The notes below the pieces were generated by a model. It searched no databases, was not told the origin of the DNA, and was given only the letters and a program-made list of their open reading frames with translations. This document shows, in pieces, positions 12,724 through 21,216 of a stretch of 28,102 bases of DNA. The translations under genes and the position numbers were made by a program. This stretch comes from a virus, in IMG/VR virus record IMGVR_UViG_3300010885_018765, positions 1-28,102 of that record. The stretch is one strand, 5' to 3'. Within the stretch, counting starts at the first letter, position 1; every line of letters begins with the position of its first letter.

Positions 12724-13998
12724 ATGGGAAACTATAACATAAAAAAATATAATGGTGCCGATGCTCCAATCCCAGAGTTGGTTGAGCATTCTGGGACATT
12801 AGATACATCAACTAGTCTAAATTTTTTTAGTAGAGGATATGATTATGGTGTTGCGGTAAATACTAATATGTTACGATTGATGGAACATTTTTGTTCATTC
12901 TCTAAACCAAAAAATCCAGTAATGGGACAATTGTGGTTTGACAGTATTAATAAATCGTTATCTGTATATAATGGTAAAACTTGGGATAATGTTAAATTTG
13001 GTACTATTACACCAAAATCTCTTCAATGGTCGGGGAATTTAACACAAAATACTATTGGTACCGAATCTACTATTTCTGGCACCATAACTGTTACTGATTA
13101 TCATTATAACTGTATATTTAAACCGGATTTATTAGCCAATAGTAATCAAGCATTATCTGATTATATTATTAGTGGTAATATTCCAACTGGTTTAACAGTA
13201 AATGTGACCGCAAATTCCCTATTTAATAGTGCATATATTACTATAACTGGAACTATCCCATCATCAACACCATCTTTTAATTTTAAAATAGAATTTAATG
13301 CATCAGCATTCACCAATGTTATGGATATTTCCGAAGTTTCTGATACATCCAACACCGCTGTGATACCCATGACGTTTACACCACCAACAACTACGTCTAC
13401 AACTTTAGCACCTACAACTACTACCACAACAGAAGCAACAACTACAACTACTACTTCACAAATTACTACTACCACTACAGCGGCAGGTACAGTTCCATTG
13501 AGTACCTTTAGTAGTATCAAATTAGGTATAACATGGGGGGGTGGCGTTGATTTAGACACCGTTGTTGCAGCATATGATGCTACCGGAAAATGTACTGACA
13601 TGTCTACGGTTACGCATGCTGGTAGTATACCAGGGGTTACGTATGGTGGTGATATTAGAACTGGTGGTACAGAAGAATATTATAATATTGATTTAACTCA
13701 ACTAACATGTAGTAAATTAGTATTAGGTATTTTAGAATATACTGATAATTCATTTACTATTATGTCTAGTTTAAATACTAACATTGTTGATAATACCACA
13801 CATACTAATATTGCCAGCTTCACCCTTTCTACTATTGCAAAAGATGCATCAAATACACCTAATACAACATGTATCGTTGGGGTATTTACTAAATCTGGAA
13901 CTACTTGGAGTTTCGTATCTTACCAAAAATTAATAAATTCACATAATGGCAAACACGCAATTTGGCCCGATGATTTATATTCTTCTTTAGGATTGTAA
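12724..13998 (+). CDS. Fibre-like protein with TerD-like C-terminal tip
   Basis: 424 residues, the simplest TerD-tipped fibre. Residues 1-95 are the shared N-terminal domain (YGVAVNTNMLRLMEHFC, then GQLWFDSINKSLSVYNGKTW). Residues 98-218 are the surface-type beta module (SLQWSGNLTQNTIGTESTIS, later KIEFNASAFTNVMDISEV). Residues 220-257 are a Thr-rich linker. Residues 260-424 look TerD-like: IKLGITW, then VDLD at 275-278 followed by AYDATGKC, then GGDIRTGG...EEYYNIDL at 308-324, KLVLGILEYTDNSF, and a final GVF...G..W.F block ending SLGL. TerD proteins show an xDLD block and a GDNRTG...E.I.IDL block that bind calcium; both are recognisable here. Bacterial TerD proteins act in stress and tellurite resistance; here the domain is a fibre tip, so adhesion or metal-dependent stabilisation is inferred. 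AAGG lies 9 bases before the ATG. Confidence 0.85.
   Translation: MGNYNIKKYNGADAPIPELVEHSGTLDTSTSLNFFSRGYDYGVAVNTNMLRLMEHFCSFSKPKNPVMGQLWFDSINKSLSVYNGKTWDNVKFGTITPKSLQWSGNLTQNTIGTESTISGTITVTDYHYNCIFKPDLLANSNQALSDYIISGNIPTGLTVNVTANSLFNSAYITITGTIPSSTPSFNFKIEFNASAFTNVMDISEVSDTSNTAVIPMTFTPPTTTSTTLAPTTTTTTEATTTTTTSQITTTTTAAGTVPLSTFSSIKLGITWGGGVDLDTVVAAYDATGKCTDMSTVTHAGSIPGVTYGGDIRTGGTEEYYNIDLTQLTCSKLVLGILEYTDNSFTIMSSLNTNIVDNTTHTNIASFTLSTIAKDASNTPNTTCIVGVFTKSGTTWSFVSYQKLINSHNGKHAIWPDDLYSSLGL
13381..13490 (+). repeat. Thr-rich low-complexity linker coding repeat
   Basis: ACN-codon runs (ACAACTACTACCACAACAG, ACTACAACTACTACTTC) encode residues 220-257 of the 12724 fibre, a Thr-rich linker joining the beta module to the TerD-like tip. 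They resemble the tract at 16311-16385, which precedes the paralogous tip. Confidence 0.8.
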
Positions 13999-14000
13999 TT

Positions 14001-16904
14001 ATGCATTCAACCTATACCATCAAAAAATATAATGGAAGTGATGCTCCAATAACAACCCTTGAAGATGTAACAGGTATTGATATTTCCACCAGTTTAACAT
14101 TCTTTGGTAAAGAATATAAACATTATGGGAAAGGATTTAATGAAAATTTCCTACATCTATTAGAGCATTTTAATTCTACCGCAATATCTAAACCATCTAA
14201 TCCAATGGTAGGACAAATGTGGTATAATAATACTTCACACCTAATGATGGTATATAATGGTGTCTTTTGGGATGAATTAAAAACTATCATCCCACAATCA
14301 TTGTCATGGTCAGGTAGCTTTACACAAGTTATTACTGGTAATAACGCTACTTTTACCGGTACCGTAACAGCAACCGCATCAGAATGCTTATTTAATTCTA
14401 CTATAGTAGCAAGTGATTACACCATTACCAATCTACCAGCTATTTTTACACCTACTGTTACTATAGATACTGTAACAAACTCAGCAAATATTACCATATC
14501 TGGTAATATGATTAAAACCACCCCATCATTTAATTTTAACATAGCATTTAAACAATCTGCATTTTCAAATGTTTATGATATTGCTGATTTATTAAATAAT
14601 CCTAAGTCTATACCATTAAATTTTGCATCAGTTACGAATAATCAACCAGTAGGGGATGTTATTATTTTAGGTACGCCTAATATTGACGAAACATTAACAG
14701 CTACCAATAATTTAACAGATGCTGATGGTATTGGAACTATTCATTATCAATGGATGAGAAATGGTACTGATATTAATAATGCAAATACCGAACATTATAC
14801 AGTAGCATCAACTGATTCTGGTGCAATTATAACTGTTAAAGCATTTTATACTGATGATTTAGGATTCTATAATAGTAAAACTAGTGCAGGATTAACTATT
14901 ATAGCACCAGTAATACCATCTATATCATTATCCTTTGTTATCCCATTTGTAGAAAAAGTATCTAATATTGGGGAATTTGAAGGTAAAATAAAAATCATAA
15001 CCACAAATTGTACAATTAATCCGTTATATGATTATGCTACCCAAAGTGCAATACAATTCAATAATATGATTGATACTAATAATGACCCTGCGAAAATAAT
15101 ACCAGTTGTTATTGTAAAAGATAGTGCATCTACCAGTACCGAATTATTATTAACTATTACAGGCACTTCCGATATTCATGATAATAATTTGACTGGTAAT
15201 ATTCTAATAGACCCACTATTATTATCGGCTACGCTAGATTCATCACAATTAATATTATCTTCACCAGTATCAATGAGACCAGTTGATGCTGATATTATTT
15301 GGGATAATACTAATATGCTCCAAGAAGAGTTAATTGCAAATGATGGTACTATGACTGGCCAATTATTAGTAAATCTACCTACTGGTTTCAATTTTGTAGC
15401 AACACCATCCATATCAATGACACCGATTGCAGGATTAACACCGGTAATTTCTGTAAATGCTGCAAAAACGGTAGGTACCATAACTTTAACTGGTAAAGCT
15501 ACTATACATGCTGAAGATTATACTAATATTACCTTTACCTTATTAGCTTCGGATATTACTACGGCAACCTTAGGGGCTATATCACCATCAACATTATCAA
15601 CAACTATCGATATTGGTATGACAGCACCAGTATATAATGTTACTTGGGATGATTCCAACCCATTTAAAGAAAATAGTACATTAAATGATGGGACTATTAC
15701 TGGACAATTAAAAGCAACATTACCAACAGGATTTACTTTTAATAGTGCGTTGATTACTATGTCACCTACAATAAATGGGATTACCGCAACACCGACATTA
15801 AATGTTGCCAACAATGAAATGACCATTGAATTATCTGGTAAAGCAACTACGCATGATACGAATTATTCAGATATAACATTTGATTTAGGTATATCTAATA
15901 CGTCAAATACTATACCAGGAACTTTAGATGTAACTACATTATCTCATAAAGTCAATATTGAAATGACCCCACCGGTATATAATGTTGCATGGGATGATTC
16001 TAATCCGTTAATAGAAGATATCTCTTTAAATAATGGTACTATTGTTGGGGGAGTTAAAGCTATATTACCAACCGGATTTACGTTTAGTAATACTAATGTA
16101 ACTATGACACCCACCATAGCTGGTATCACAGTGTCCCCAACATTGAATGCCGCTAATACGGAAATGACTATTGCATTATCAGGTCAAGCAACATCAGCAG
16201 ATACCACTTTTACTGGAATTACCTTTACTTTAAATGTATCGGATACCACACATATAATACCAGGTACATTAGATAGTGCTACATTATCACATACGGTTAA
16301 TATTACTATGTATCCTACCACTACAACTACTGCAGCACCTACTACAACTACTACCACCGAAGTCACTACCACCACTACTGCATCGGCAGCAGCACCAGTT
16401 CAATTAGCAACATATACTGGTATTAAATTCGGTGTTACTTGGCAAGGGTCAGTTGATTTAGATTCTGTCATTGCCGCATATGATTCCTCCGGAAATTGTG
16501 TTGCTATGAAAACAGTCACGCATTCTGATAATATTACTGGGGTAGTATATGGTGGGGATATTACCACTGGTGGCCAAGAAGAATATTACGATATTGATTT
16601 ATCTACAGTACCATATGATAAATTAGTATTAGGCATAATGGAATATACCGATAATTCATTTAATTCGGTAACTGGATTGTCTACCAGAATTGTTGACCTT
16701 AGTAATAATACCAATATTGCACAATTCAATTTGGGAACAATTACTAAAACTGCATCAAATACGGCAAATACTACCTGTGTTATTGGGGTATTCTCAAAAT
16801 CTGGCAATAATTGGAACTTCACATCTTACCAAAAATTAATTAATTCCCATAATGGTAAACATGCCATTTACAATGGTGATGCTTACGCATCATTAGGATT
16901 ATAA
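14001..16904 (+). CDS. Long fibre-like protein with tandem beta modules and TerD-like tip
   Basis: 967 residues, the longest fibre in the window; AGGA lies 9 bases before the ATG, 2 bases after the previous stop. Order of modules: shared N-terminal domain (1-97; YGKGFNENFLHLLEHF, then GQMWYNN), a beta module (98-215), an Ig-like repeat (about 217-300; TDADGIGTIHYQWMRNG), a divergent beta module (about 305-425), three beta modules repeated with an exact 115-residue period (marked by Trp434, Trp549 and Trp664), a Thr-rich linker (772-800), and a TerD-like tip (803-967). The tip keeps VDLD (818-821), GGDITTGG...EEYYDIDL from 851 and a C-terminal SLGL, and is clearly paralogous to the tip of the preceding gene. 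The beta modules resemble repeats of bacterial surface proteins. Length and tandem modules suggest an extended rod with a globular tip. The stop abuts the stop of the convergent gene with no terminator between. Confidence 0.85.
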   Translation: MHSTYTIKKYNGSDAPITTLEDVTGIDISTSLTFFGKEYKHYGKGFNENFLHLLEHFNSTAISKPSNPMVGQMWYNNTSHLMMVYNGVFWDELKTIIPQSLSWSGSFTQVITGNNATFTGTVTATASECLFNSTIVASDYTITNLPAIFTPTVTIDTVTNSANITISGNMIKTTPSFNFNIAFKQSAFSNVYDIADLLNNPKSIPLNFASVTNNQPVGDVIILGTPNIDETLTATNNLTDADGIGTIHYQWMRNGTDINNANTEHYTVASTDSGAIITVKAFYTDDLGFYNSKTSAGLTIIAPVIPSISLSFVIPFVEKVSNIGEFEGKIKIITTNCTINPLYDYATQSAIQFNNMIDTNNDPAKIIPVVIVKDSASTSTELLLTITGTSDIHDNNLTGNILIDPLLLSATLDSSQLILSSPVSMRPVDADIIWDNTNMLQEELIANDGTMTGQLLVNLPTGFNFVATPSISMTPIAGLTPVISVNAAKTVGTITLTGKATIHAEDYTNITFTLLASDITTATLGAISPSTLSTTIDIGMTAPVYNVTWDDSNPFKENSTLNDGTITGQLKATLPTGFTFNSALITMSPTINGITATPTLNVANNEMTIELSGKATTHDTNYSDITFDLGISNTSNTIPGTLDVTTLSHKVNIEMTPPVYNVAWDDSNPLIEDISLNNGTIVGGVKAILPTGFTFSNTNVTMTPTIAGITVSPTLNAANTEMTIALSGQATSADTTFTGITFTLNVSDTTHIIPGTLDSATLSHTVNITMYPTTTTTAAPTTTTTTEVTTTTTASAAAPVQLATYTGIKFGVTWQGSVDLDSVIAAYDSSGNCVAMKTVTHSDNITGVVYGGDITTGGQEEYYDIDLSTVPYDKLVLGIMEYTDNSFNSVTGLSTRIVDLSNNTNIAQFNLGTITKTASNTANTTCVIGVFSKSGNNWNFTSYQKLINSHNGKHAIYNGDAYASLGL
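15285..16310 (+). repeat. 345-bp tandem repeat (three 115-residue beta modules)
   Basis: Three consecutive in-frame units encode homologous modules. The marker Trp codons lie at 15300, 15645 and 15990, exactly 345 bases apart. Each unit runs W.D.N...E....DGT(I/M).G, LPTGF.F, MTP.I.G, then LSG.AT and ends IXM. Units two and three are the most alike, including at DNA level (GATGATTC in both), suggesting the later duplication. Confidence 0.9.
16311..16385 (+). repeat. Thr-rich low-complexity linker coding repeat
   Basis: ACN-codon runs (CCACTACAACTACTGCAG, ACTACAACTACTACCACCG) encode the linker before the TerD-like tip of the 14001 fibre. They are similar to 13381-13490, so the two tips plus linkers form paralogous cassettes. 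Confidence 0.8.
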
Positions 16905-17141
16905 TTATTCCCATTGGTCATCAATAACTTCTTCATCTCTATATATAACATAAGTACGGTTATCGTGTTTCGCACGATAACCTACATCATTTAGATGGTA
17001 TTTAAAGAATTCATAAAACTTATTTTGAAAATGATAAGCTATTTTATCATTTAATTCTTGTTCTGTTATAATTATCCCATCAGGGAATTCTATTAATAAT
17101 TTTAAGTATTTTGATAATATTTTATAAAAGTTTGGTTTCAT
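16905..17141 (-). CDS. Small protein of unknown function
   Basis: 78 residues, no recognised family. The sequence is a mix of helical, basic and aromatic stretches (FYKILSKYLKLLIEF, HFQNKFYEFFKYHLNDVGY) with an acidic end (RDEEVIDDQWE). There is no signal peptide, membrane segment or cysteine pair. A strong AGGAG lies 6 bases upstream of the ATG, and a near-consensus sigma70-type promoter precedes it, so it is probably expressed by host polymerase, perhaps early, unlike the surrounding structural genes. Its stop directly abuts that of the long fibre gene. Good ribosome site and promoter make it likely real. Confidence 0.75.
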   Translation of the reverse strand: MKPNFYKILSKYLKLLIEFPDGIIITEQELNDKIAYHFQNKFYEFFKYHLNDVGYRAKHDNRTYVIYRDEEVIDDQWE

Positions 17142-17212: not shown

Positions 17213-17737
17213 ATGTTATTAATAGAATTACATAATCCTAATGTACGAGCCTTGATATATAAGGATAAACCGCCACAATTGTTTCATCTTTCTAAGGATG
17301 CTAATCTTAAAAAATTATCACCAAATATCCCTAGAGATGTAAAAAATAAAGAAAATCCTTTTGAGGATAATACGATTCCCCGAATTTCATTTTCAGAATC
17401 TATTAATGGTTGCATTCTTGGACTACAATTAAAAGAATCACAATTTGATAAAGGGATTTGTAGATTCTATGTATATCAACCTATGGTACAAGAACATACT
17501 AATTTAGTATCAAATGATACTATTAATCATAATAGATTAGTATTTGATTCTAAGATTACCAAAGAATGGTGGGGATTAAATACGGTACATGTTAAACAAA
17601 TAGGTATAATAGAAGTAATCGAAAAACCTTTTAAAACCATAGAATTCACGCCATTAAGAATAGGTGATAAGAAATTTTTAAAACCCAATGGTAAATTAGA
17701 TACGTATCAATATAATTTCAAATGGATAGAGAAATGA
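17213..17737 (+). CDS. Unknown protein with possible ADP-ribosyltransferase-like fold
   Basis: 174 residues. After the leader MLLIELHNPN comes PQLFHLSKDANLKKLSPNIP (residues 21-40, His25), then NTIPRISFSESINGCILGL (53-71), FYVYQP, and a C-terminal EWWGLN...VKQIGIIEVIE strand. The order 'FH.S....L.P.iP', 'PRiSFs.sI..C..gL', 'fYVY.P', 'W.L..i' recalls small orphan domains of the ADP-ribosyltransferase type (first-strand His, serine-rich second motif, late Glu). This comes from pattern memory only. The N-terminal MLLIEL resembles the MKLVEL and MKLIEL starts of two other proteins nearby. The ribosome site before the ATG is poor. The stop overlaps the next start (ATGA), so the two genes are coupled and may act together. 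Confidence 0.7.
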   Translation: MLLIELHNPNVRALIYKDKPPQLFHLSKDANLKKLSPNIPRDVKNKENPFEDNTIPRISFSESINGCILGLQLKESQFDKGICRFYVYQPMVQEHTNLVSNDTINHNRLVFDSKITKEWWGLNTVHVKQIGIIEVIEKPFKTIEFTPLRIGDKKFLKPNGKLDTYQYNFKWIEK

Positions 17738-18786
17738 AATTAGTAGAATTATTTGAAGCTAGAAAAAATCCTGAATTAAATCCTAGATTGTCAGCATATG
17801 AACAATTATTAGAGTATAAAAGCAATCCCCATGCTTATATCCATTTTTCTAATGAAAATAAATTAGGTATCAACCCTAAAGAAAAAGTATATAATGGTGA
17901 AAAAGTTACGGAAACACCATTAGGAATATATGCATATCCGTTACGTGAATCATGGAAACATTATAGGGTAGACCATTCACAATCTTTCATGGAGTTCCCA
18001 CATTCTAAAAAGAAACCGTTCATATTGTTATTTAAATATGATAATCCTTTAGTAGATGTTTCTAAGTATAAAAGTTTAGAAGAAGATACGGAGCATTTAA
18101 AATCTAAATATTCTCATCTTATTAATGTTGATGCTTGTTTAGAAAGAGCTAAACATGAGGTATATAATCCTTCAGAATTCCAAATATTTTGGAGATTGAC
18201 CCATAATATTGCTAAAGAATTACATCCTGAACATGTGTCACATCAATGGAATACAGTTCTTAGAGCATTAGGATATGATGGCTTTCATGATAAAACAGGT
18301 AAGGGTTGGATTCATCATAGTGAACCAGTACAATCCATATTATTAAAATATCAAAATATTAATATTTTAGATATGGTTCTTAATAAAGATTATAGAAATC
18401 TTAAAACAGAATTAATGGATGTTGATTCTCCTCCAGAATTGGTAGAACTGTTAAAAGATAAAACTGTAAAAATTAGAAATGTGTTAATGTCTATTGATGA
18501 TAATTTAATCACTTATATGCATAAGTATCTACAACATATTAGCGATAGTGGTAGACTGATGCAATTTATTAATAATAGACAACCTACTGATATGAAGTTA
18601 CTATTATTAGTATGGTTAAATGGTCATGCTAATGTTAGTAGTCATGACCATCATATGATTGAACATTTAAAAAGAACCTTTGATGCACCATCTGATAAAA
18701 TATTAGCATATGCTAAACATATGGTGAAAATGAAATGGCATGAAGATATTCTGAAACATAATTTAGATTTATTAAAAACTTTGTAA
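17734..18786 (+). CDS. Putative ADP-ribosyltransferase-like protein, possibly virion-packaged
   Basis: About 350 residues. I chose the ATG at 17734 over 17722 because it forms an ATGA overlap with the previous stop and gives the leader MKLVELFEARK, like MKLIEL in a nearby gene. Residues 35-70 contain YIHFSNENKLGINP and TPLGIYAYPL; residues 179-200 are LGYDGFHDKTGKGWIHHSEPV. This order (His in the first strand, a Tyr-containing second motif, then GYDG...G.IH..EP.Q with Glu197) fits the H-Y-E arrangement of ADP-ribosyltransferase-like domains in phage proteins. The remaining 150 residues are helical with no recognised motif. T4 packages and injects the ADP-ribosyltransferase Alt, so ejection with DNA is possible here. 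Activity and targets are unknown, and the fold call needs a structure prediction. Confidence 0.72.
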   Translation: MKLVELFEARKNPELNPRLSAYEQLLEYKSNPHAYIHFSNENKLGINPKEKVYNGEKVTETPLGIYAYPLRESWKHYRVDHSQSFMEFPHSKKKPFILLFKYDNPLVDVSKYKSLEEDTEHLKSKYSHLINVDACLERAKHEVYNPSEFQIFWRLTHNIAKELHPEHVSHQWNTVLRALGYDGFHDKTGKGWIHHSEPVQSILLKYQNINILDMVLNKDYRNLKTELMDVDSPPELVELLKDKTVKIRNVLMSIDDNLITYMHKYLQHISDSGRLMQFINNRQPTDMKLLLLVWLNGHANVSSHDHHMIEHLKRTFDAPSDKILAYAKHMVKMKWHEDILKHNLDLLKTL

Positions 18787-18788
18787 TA

Positions 18789-18819
18789 AAAAAATCCCTG
18801 CCGTAGGCAGGGATTTTTT
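18789..18819. terminator. Bidirectional rho-independent terminator
   Basis: A perfect 14-bp inverted repeat (AAAAAATCCCTGCC, loop GTA, GGCAGGGATTTTTT) lies between convergent genes ending at 18786 (plus) and 18818 (minus). Its final bases overlap the stop codon of the minus-strand gene. Confidence 0.95.
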
Positions 18820-19703: not shown

Positions 19704-20168
19704 ATGATTAATTTTGACCATTACCAAAATGCTAAAGATATATTAGATAATTACCCAATATATGATGATGGAGATACTTTTAAAATAACTTATGAATTCA
19801 ATGGTAAATCTTTTACCATCAATATGAAATATTTCTTTAAAGATGAAATATTATTTGGATTTATACATTATGATGTACCAGATAACAATTATGATGACGA
19901 TTCGTCATATTTAGTTGGATATATTATTGAACGATACGTTATAACTAAATGTGGTAATATTAGGTGTACATTTACATTTTATACCGATGATGATATCCCC
20001 AAATATCATTATTATCCAACATTTGGATTAAATCATATTAGCTTTTTTGATACCACCGTTGATATAAAATCAACTAAATATTCTTATTATATGGCATCAA
20101 ATCATAATTTTTCAACAACAATGATAAATTTTCAACCACTTATTGATTTTTTGGATAATGAAATATGA
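19704..20168 (+). CDS. Unknown protein, first copy of a tandem duplicated pair
   Basis: 154 residues. It is clearly paralogous to the next gene: both share NAKDILD.YPIYDDGDT, KSFTINMKYF, DSSYLVGYI.ERY and end FLDNEI. It is acidic and aromatic with alternating strands, with no known catalytic motif, signal peptide or membrane segment. AAGGA lies 8 bases before the ATG. The stop overlaps the next start (ATGA), so the two copies are co-translated, as expected for subunits of one complex or for a recent duplication. I do not recognise the family. Confidence 0.8.
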   Translation: MINFDHYQNAKDILDNYPIYDDGDTFKITYEFNGKSFTINMKYFFKDEILFGFIHYDVPDNNYDDDSSYLVGYIIERYVITKCGNIRCTFTFYTDDDIPKYHYYPTFGLNHISFFDTTVDIKSTKYSYYMASNHNFSTTMINFQPLIDFLDNEI

Positions 20169-20638
20169 ATATTTTTGAACATTGTTACAACGCCAAAGAC
20201 ATCTTAGATACCTACCCAATATATGATGATGGTGATACATGTACAATATCTTATGAATATAATAATAAATCATTTACAATCAACATGAAATATTTTTGGG
20301 GTACCGATAGACGGTTTTATGGATTTGTAAATTTTTTTGAGCAACAGAATAATTTGGATGAGGATTCATCATATTTAGTAGGGTATATATTAGAACGGTA
20401 TATAAACCACATTTCTAATACTGAATATCCACCAATAACTGTAGTATTTTATACAGCAGATAATATGCCAGAATATCATAAATTAGCAACACTGGGATTT
20501 AATCACATTTGGTTTTTCAATACTAGAACAAATATTAAATCCAATAAATATAATTTTTATATCGTTTCATGTTTTAATAATTTACAAACATCATGGGACG
20601 ATAAACAACTAATACATTTTTTGGATAATGAAATATGA
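20165..20638 (+). CDS. Unknown protein, second copy of a tandem duplicated pair
   Basis: 157 residues, aligning end to end with the preceding protein; the most conserved parts are residues 9-25, 35-45 (KSFTINMKYF) and DSSYLVGYILERY. The middle differs most (ITVVFYTADNMPEYHKLATLG here against CTFTFYTDDDIPKYHYYPTFG there), consistent with divergence after duplication. It starts in an ATGA overlap with copy one and ends in an ATGA overlap with the next gene, making a three-gene coupled unit. Function unknown. Confidence 0.8.
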   Translation: MNIFEHCYNAKDILDTYPIYDDGDTCTISYEYNNKSFTINMKYFWGTDRRFYGFVNFFEQQNNLDEDSSYLVGYILERYINHISNTEYPPITVVFYTADNMPEYHKLATLGFNHIWFFNTRTNIKSNKYNFYIVSCFNNLQTSWDDKQLIHFLDNEI

Positions 20639-21216
20639 AATTAATTGAGCTTAAAAACATATATGAAAGTATGGAGACCAAAATAGAAGATATACAATGG
20701 CATATTAATGGGTATAGATTTGACGGTGAATTTGTGGATAGTAGAGGTGATACATATGAAATAAGATTAGTTAATCTGTCATCGTATACTTCTAATTACC
20801 CACATTTATATGGTACATTGAGACATGCACTAATATATGATATACAATTTGGTATATTAAAAAATGGTAAATCTGATATTGCCCTTACTGATAAAGGTAA
20901 TGTGATGGAGATTTTGAGTATTGTTCGACATGCAGCATTTGATAAATTTAAAGCCGACCATATTGTACCAGATGTTATAAGTTTCACAGCGTCAAGTATA
21001 CCTACGGATAATACCCCAGAACAATTTAACAAACGTAAACAAGCATATCATATTATTGCTAATAGATTACGCAAAGAATTAACAGAACCATATAATTATC
21101 CTTACGTAATCCCCAATATTGTCGGTAAGTATGGAACTGCGGTTTTGTTGAGTAAAATTTATTTAGATGCTACTGAAGTACAACGAATATCCAATGTCCT
21201 ACAGAGAAAACCATAA
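20635..21216 (+). CDS. Unknown phage protein with MKLIEL leader
   Basis: 193 residues. It begins MKLIELKNIYE, like the leaders of the genes at 17213 and 17734. A beta-rich part (GYRFDGEFVDSRGDTYEIRL, YDIQFGILKNGKSDIALTD) is followed by a helical segment (GNVMEILSIVRHAAFDKF), a short strand (VPDVISFTASS) and another helix (NKRKQAYHIIANRLRKEL). The pattern 'mEIl..v...i..f......d.i.FtA......R...Y..ia.rL' is common in uncharacterised phage proteins; I cannot name a function. The start overlaps the stop of the duplicated pair (ATGA). No terminator follows before the neck operon promoter region. Confidence 0.75.
   Translation: MKLIELKNIYESMETKIEDIQWHINGYRFDGEFVDSRGDTYEIRLVNLSSYTSNYPHLYGTLRHALIYDIQFGILKNGKSDIALTDKGNVMEILSIVRHAAFDKFKADHIVPDVISFTASSIPTDNTPEQFNKRKQAYHIIANRLRKELTEPYNYPYVIPNIVGKYGTAVLLSKIYLDATEVQRISNVLQRKP

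What the first reader, a model, noticed from the sequence alone, without database searches (positions are those of the whole stretch)
17213..18786. Coupled pair of ADP-ribosyltransferase-like proteins among structural genes
The 17734 protein has an H-Y-E-like order (YIHFS, TPLGIYAYP, GYDGF...GWIHHSEPVQ), and the 17213 protein has FHLSKD...LSPNIP, PRISFSESI and FYVYQP. They are ATGA-coupled and lie in the late region. T4 injects such enzymes (Alt) to modify host polymerase. The pair could be a virion-delivered effector system with unknown targets; the second gene may be a partner rather than an enzyme.
Basis: inference. Interest (0 to 1): 0.6.

Follow-up and report, generated by a model that had tools for sequence, protein, structure and literature searches.

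The report
Two tagged ADP-ribosyltransferase-like phage proteins
Two neighbouring genes of an uncultured giant phage encode proteins with the fold of enzymes that attach ADP-ribose to other molecules; [quoted passage not shown]

Summary
Two ATGA-overlapping genes (17213-17737, 17734-18786) lie in a T4-type structural cluster of a jumbo myovirus fragment; both are under purifying selection. AlphaFold2 models of both give ADP-ribosyltransferase (ART) folds in PDB searches. Protein 1 matches TreX, pertussis and cholera toxin-type ARTs and Arr. Protein 2 (core residues 20-220, pLDDT mostly above 93) matches a cyanophage ejectosome protein, RES toxins, PARP1, diphtheria toxin and AcrIF11.

Protein 2 belongs to a large family (about 150 copies here, up to 9 per phage) that has no Pfam model and is nearly absent from cultured phages. 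Most members start with a short peptide ending [LI]xE, resembling the T4 capsid-targeting propeptide. Related phages encode the T4-type prohead protease, and their capsid proteins carry the same LxE site. A third window gene shares the start M-x-L-[IV]-E-L.

Best reading: Alt-like enzymes packed in the head, trimmed, and injected. The fold is well supported; packaging is inferred from tag and context; NAD-dependent activity is untested. The pairing is local: seen only in the window and its closest relatives.

The parts
17213..17737 (+). P1, 174 aa, ART-fold protein; begins MLLIEL
   Evidence: AF2 mean pLDDT 79.7; the ranked PDB matches are nearly all ARTs: TreX Z 7.7, pertussis S1 7.4, EcPltA 6.8, Scabin 6.4, cholera toxin 6.2, Arr 5.7; phrog_10766 E 2e-13, unknown function; dN/dS 0.13
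17285..17287 (+). P1 His25, strand 1, first-motif position
   Evidence: conserved in 11 of 12 relatives; by the alignment ends it falls opposite the first-motif residue of pertussis toxin, cholera toxin and Arr (residue numbers of those enzymes from memory, ungapped start assumed)
17564..17566 (+). P1 Glu118, candidate catalytic Glu in the T-x-E-x-W motif
   Evidence: invariant in 12 of 12 relatives, strand 118-121
17734..18786 (+). P2, 350 aa, ART-fold protein of a large family without a Pfam model
   Evidence: dN/dS 0.12
17734..17757 (+). P2 N-terminal peptide MKLVELFE, then A9: capsid-targeting-like, predicted prohead-protease site after Glu8 (LFE^A)
   Evidence: family-wide tag; [LI]xE in the first 16 residues in 91/125 family members against 228/870 neighbouring genes; separate helix 3-11 in the model
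17821..18402 (+). P2 ART core, residues 30-223
   Evidence: pLDDT mostly above 93; aligned range of 9k3a_B, MbcT, ParT, PARP1 and diphtheria toxin matches
17842..17844 (+). P2 His37 (motif 1; Ser, Thr or His in the family)
   Evidence: S 53, T 13, H 12 of 86
17929..17931 (+). P2 Tyr66 (motif 2, TPxGIYxYP)
   Evidence: 86/86, but the search pattern forced it; also kept in nearly all family copies that do not fit the pattern, wherever that region is covered
18322..18324 (+). P2 Glu197, candidate catalytic Glu (H-x-x-E-P-x-Q)
   Evidence: 81/86; His194 78/86, Gln200 82/86, Asp186 86/86
18403..18783 (+). P2 C-terminal helical region, variable in the family
   Evidence: low pLDDT; C-termini differ between members
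18789..18819 (.). 14-bp perfect hairpin with A- and U-rich ends between P2 and the convergent gene: likely bidirectional terminator
   Evidence: -20.6 kcal/mol, z -6.25; the scan tool did not list it, probably because the T run is part of the stem
20635..21216 (+). third gene with the same start (MKLIELKNIYES), 193 aa, unknown
   Evidence: only three of 63 window ORFs contain M-x-L-[IV]-E-L, all three at their start

Best explanation
Both genes encode ART-fold, probably NAD-using effectors made late in infection. P2, and probably P1, carries a short N-terminal peptide that targets it into the prohead core. The phage's S77 prohead protease cleaves it after LFE8 (P1: perhaps after LIE5). The trimmed enzyme stays in the head, enters the next host with the DNA, and modifies host molecules early in infection, as T4 Alt does. 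The P2 core (S/T/H-Y-E positions plus conserved Lys43, Asn47, Asp186, His194, Gln200) is the catalytic part; its variable C-terminus may select targets. Shown here by computation: real coupled genes under purifying selection, ART folds, the conserved residues, and an N-terminal peptide matching the protease motif. Inferred: packaging, cleavage, injection, ADP-ribosyl transfer. Unknown: the targets.
For: Fold of P2: AF2 core pLDDT mostly above 93. Matches over residues 30-223 are dominated by ART-superfamily chains: 9k3a_B Z 7.8, MbcT 5.5, ParT 4.7, PARP1 4.7, diphtheria toxin 4.5; Foldseek 9k3a_B E 5e-4 and 6kyf prob 0.93; viral ART-PolyVal and PARP-domain proteins. Fold of P1: nearly every ranked match is an ART; top Foldseek match is Arr. 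Catalytic-type conservation: Tyr66, Asp186, His194, Glu197, Gln200. Tag. S77 protease in 12 of 26 family-bearing records, including the window's closest relative G001; gp23-type capsid proteins whose N-terminal propeptide ends LxE[A/S/N/T], also in the cultured relatives XacN1 and RAS14. T4 gp21 cleaves after L/I-X-E, and 10-19-residue N-terminal propeptides target internal proteins; Alt is head-packaged and cleaved (PMC9026906). About 44% of phage ARTs lie in contexts suggesting head packaging (PMC9503650).
Against: His37 is Ser or Thr in most members, so the NAD-binding first motif is not canonical. The Z-scores are moderate (below 8). The top match is a structural ejectosome chain, so an ART fold need not mean activity. 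[LI]xE is short and common (26% of neighbouring genes), and family members are related, so the enrichment counts shared ancestry many times. The strict tag with EAR was not seen in unrelated genes. The window genes lie among tail and neck genes, not head genes. No proteomics exists.
Confidence: 0.52

Rival explanations
1. P2 is a packaged virion or ejection component whose ART fold is structural (a pseudo-enzyme), like the ART-like part of the cyanophage A4 ejectosome chain.
For: The best structural match is that virion chain; Pf-WMP3 protein 26 also matches; the first-motif His is lost in most members.
Against: Strong conservation of polar residues at the ART active-site positions (Tyr66, Glu197, Gln200, His194, Asp186), with up to nine divergent paralogues per phage and variable C-termini, looks like enzymes or effectors rather than one structural part.
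Confidence: 0.2
2. The proteins are ARTs acting inside the infected cell late in infection (like ModA or ModB), not packaged; the N-terminal peptide is just part of the fold.
For: Late operon-like position with a likely terminator; no virion data; the EAR tag is confined to this family.
Against: The peptide is a separate N-terminal helix outside the core, matches the protease motif, and a shorter form of it is shared with two other window proteins that show no sequence similarity to P2.
Confidence: 0.15
3. P2 breaks down NAD (NADase or NAD phosphorylase, RES-like) rather than transferring ADP-ribose, for example to deplete NAD or defeat NAD-based defence.
For: RES-domain proteins (MbcT, ParT, Xre-RES) are among the matches over the core; family genes sit next to NAMPT in L088 and near NAD synthetase in L045.
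Against: PARP1 and diphtheria toxin match about as well; jumbo phages often carry NAD genes, so the context is weak.
Confidence: 0.1
4. P1 and P2 are an obligate pair (enzyme and partner, or toxin and antidote).
For: The ATGA overlap is kept in L001 and L002 at 85% identity.
Against: Both have ART folds. Most P2 phages searched lack P1, and the P1-bearing cultured jumbo phages searched lack P2.
Confidence: 0.03

Closest known systems
T4 Alt (Alt/VIP2 clade, R-S-E) and the T4 capsid-targeting sequence system
   Same: Phage ART made late; N-terminal peptide ending in an L/I-X-E prohead-protease site; T4-type head with S77 protease.
   Different: P2 is closer to the diphtheria/PARP/RES side than to the R-S-E clade; it is multi-copy; packaging is not shown.
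ART-PolyVal (Tox-ART-HYD2) domains of phage polyvalent proteins
   Same: ART fold in phage proteins thought to be injected; viral structure matches include ART-PolyVal-annotated proteins.
   Different: Those have His-Tyr-Asp (PMC5512222); P2 has Ser/Thr/His-Tyr-Glu, no Pfam match, and is a stand-alone protein with a tag.
Cyanophage A4 pre-ejectosome chain (PDB 9k3a_B, residues 1419-1610)
   Same: Best structural match of the P2 core (Z 7.8, 158 residues aligned).
   Different: Part of a very large ejection protein; 12% identity.
AcrIF11 (PDB 6kyf), RES toxins MbcT and ParT, PARP1, diphtheria toxin
   Same: ART core topology matched by P2. The name AcrIF11 for 6kyf is from memory; the record says anti-CRISPR protein.
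   Different: Very low sequence identity; no shared context.
Rhs ART toxins TreX/TreTu, pertussis and cholera toxin ART subunits, Arr (for P1)
   Same: Fold of P1, with His25, the Ser-rich strand and Glu118 at plausible motif positions.
   Different: P1 has His rather than Arg in motif 1 and Thr-x-Glu rather than Glu/Gln-x-Glu; no secretion context.

Membership tests
ART superfamily (fold) | Split beta-sheet ART core matched to solved ARTs | tested here: met
   P2. P1. Z moderate (below 8), but the matches over the cores are dominated by ARTs.
H-Y-E class ART (P2) | Conserved His in strand 1 | tested here: not met
   Position 37: Ser 53, Thr 13, His 12 of 86; the window protein itself has His.
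H-Y-E class ART (P2) | Conserved Tyr and catalytic Glu | tested here: met
   Tyr66 in all aligned members, and in nearly all copies where the search did not force it; Glu197 81/86. Their spatial placement was inferred only from alignment ends.
R-S-E class ART (P1) | Arg in strand 1, Ser motif, Glu/Gln-x-Glu | tested here: not met
   His25 in place of Arg, Thr116-x-Glu118; Ser61/Ser63 and Glu118 are kept.
ART-PolyVal (Tox-ART-HYD2) | His-Tyr-Asp active site; Pfam match | tested here: not met
   No ART model among the matches listed in the Pfam scan of 86 members; Glu, not Asp, at the third position.
T4-type capsid-targeted internal protein | Short N-terminal propeptide ending L/I-X-E | tested here: met
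   motif from PMC9026906
T4-type capsid-targeted internal protein | Phage has an S77 prohead protease with LxE sites in its capsid protein | tested here: met
   Protease in the nearest relative and 11 other records; capsid-protein sites in other family-bearing phages and in XacN1 and RAS14. The window itself is too short to contain these genes.
T4-type capsid-targeted internal protein | Protein present and cleaved in the mature head | not testable with these tools
   needs virion proteomics
Active ADP-ribosyltransferase | NAD-dependent transfer | not testable with these tools
   needs biochemistry

The most novel reading that the evidence does not exclude
P2 founds a large family of ART-fold effectors, missing from Pfam and almost unseen in cultured phages, with an unusual Ser/Thr-Tyr-Glu active site. 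Jumbo phages load arsenals of up to nine variants into their heads through a T4-style cleavable tag, each variant aimed by its own C-terminal region.
Probability: 0.4. Interest if true: 0.75.

Novelty: new variant of a known kind. Interest (0 to 1): 0.58.

Why it matters
Head-packaged ARTs are known from T4 Alt and predicted in polyvalent proteins, but this family is large and multi-copy and had no Pfam model and only scattered unknown PHROGs, so it is invisible to usual annotation. If the tag is a capsid-targeting signal, it offers a simple sequence rule for predicting which proteins uncultured jumbo phages inject, testable in one proteomics experiment.

Tried and rejected
Pfam and PHROG scans of P2 alone gave nothing useful. 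Profile search of PDB sequences: no relative. A protein or alignment search of the viral collection returned only the closest relatives plus one huge-phage homologue; the family appeared only through the peptide pattern TPxGIYxYP, which forces that motif, so conservation there was rechecked on copies that do not fit the pattern. A first P1 pattern found nothing; a looser one gave bacterial and phage relatives. Portable strict tag (ending E[AK]R): not found in unrelated neighbouring genes; a looser tag was in excess over shuffles, 38 against 10, but this is weak. P1-P2 as a conserved system: rejected. A regulatory reading of TATAATAAAT upstream of P1: fewer matches in the window than chance, dropped. 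An intrinsic-terminator scan missed the hairpin that folding shows. A search for a paper on the cyanophage A4 ejectosome found none in the library.

Full report
What is there. The window is a 28-kb virus record from a jumbo myovirus whose structural proteins are distantly related to Xanthomonas phage XacN1 and Stenotrophomonas phages RAS14 and CM1 (29-40% identity). It holds a T4-type late cluster: baseplate wedge, lysozyme, TerD-domain virion-type proteins, head-tail adaptor, gp15 sheath stabiliser and tail sheath. P1 (17213-17737) and P2 (17734-18786) overlap by ATGA. The unit is bounded upstream by a short ORF on the other strand (16905-17141) and downstream by a 14-bp perfect hairpin with A/U-rich ends, a likely bidirectional terminator. 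Contigs L001 and L002 keep the same overlap. dN/dS is 0.13 and 0.12.

P2 family. Direct searches found close relatives and one 735-kb metagenomic phage. A profile gives 161 hits in the fetched loci, with duplicates from overlapping loci. All 26 records searched whole have copies, up to nine per phage, often in tandem. Among 86 aligned members Asp186 is invariant; Lys43, Gly45, Asn47, Pro48, His194, Glu197 and Gln200 are at least 90% conserved. The TP-G-Y-YP residues are invariant but were forced by the search; nearly all copies that do not fit the pattern keep them. Position 37 is mostly Ser, Thr or His. No Pfam family describes the group, and only nine member-level matches to four PHROGs of unknown function were found among 86 members. 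tblastn against 50,697 phage records finds almost no cultured member; Rhodothermus phage RM378 has two.

Fold of P2. The model (86 sequences) has a core at residues 20-220, mostly above 93 pLDDT, a separate N-terminal helix 3-11, and a low-confidence helical C-terminus. Matches over the core are the cyanophage A4 pre-ejectosome chain (Z 7.8), MbcT (5.5), ParT, PARP1, diphtheria toxin and the anti-CRISPR protein 6kyf; viral matches include ART-PolyVal and PARP-domain proteins. With the diphtheria toxin chain the aligned ends (30 to 14, 223 to 174) would put residues 37 and 197 opposite 21 and 148, the His and Glu of that enzyme as I remember them. This assumes ungapped ends and is a hint, not a test.

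Fold of P1. Relatives occur in other jumbo phages and in bacterial and viral contigs, some inside proteins of 850-1,500 residues. His25, Ser63, Asp112, Glu118 and Trp120 are conserved. The model's ranked matches are nearly all ARTs. Foldseek's top match is Arr.

N-terminal peptide. Most P2-family proteins start like MRYHEIVE^ARRNPEQNPK. [LI]xE falls in the first 16 residues in 91 of 125 members against 228 of 870 neighbouring genes; relatedness inflates this. T4's gp21 cleaves after L/I-X-E, and short N-terminal propeptides carry internal proteins, Alt among the cleaved ones, into the head (PMC9026906). The S77 protease is in 12 of 26 family-bearing records, including the window's nearest relative, whose own protease starts MKTQLLVE^D. 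Capsid proteins of these phages and of XacN1 and RAS14 carry LxE followed by A, S, N or T just before the conserved part. In the window, M-x-L-[IV]-E-L occurs in exactly three ORFs, each time at the start: P1, P2 and the 20635 gene. Among 8,277 ORFs of all loci it is otherwise found only in P2-family and P1 genes. The pattern was drawn from P1 and P2, so only the third gene is independent evidence.

Pairing. P1 is absent from nearly all other P2-bearing records, and P2 from the P1-bearing cultured phages searched and from XacN1 and RAS14. The pair is a local arrangement.

Judgement. ART fold for both: about 0.9. Head packaging with cleavage: about 0.6. NAD-dependent activity of P2: about 0.6. 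Jointly about 0.5. The idea of injected phage ARTs is known; the family, its altered first motif and its tag are what is new.

Noticed in passing
window 20635-21216: 193-aa protein of unknown family with the same start (MKLIEL) as P1 and P2; a candidate third head-targeted protein.
   Followed up: partly
window 19704-20638: Two adjacent paralogues (154 and 157 aa...NAKDILDxYPIYDDGDT...) look like a tandem duplication.
   Followed up: no
window 12724-16904: Two large virion-type proteins end in TerD-like domains after Thr-rich low-complexity linkers.
   Followed up: no
L043:6126-7013 (-): Neighbour of a family gene starting MRINEILTE^GL followed by YHYTN...G.F; might be another ART-like protein with the same kind of tag; no Pfam match.
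   Followed up: no
L061:2591-3847 (-): CCA-adding or poly(A) polymerase-like enzyme starting MKIIKFITE^A, as if head-targeted.
   Followed up: no
L088:7868-9301 and L045:1386-3302: NAD salvage or synthesis genes (NAMPT, NAD synthetase) beside family genes.
   Followed up: no
L101:1-3126: T4-type portal protein gene interrupted by an intein, upstream of a family gene.
   Followed up: no
L167, L193, L195: P1-like domain embedded in very large proteins of bacterial or viral contigs.
   Followed up: no
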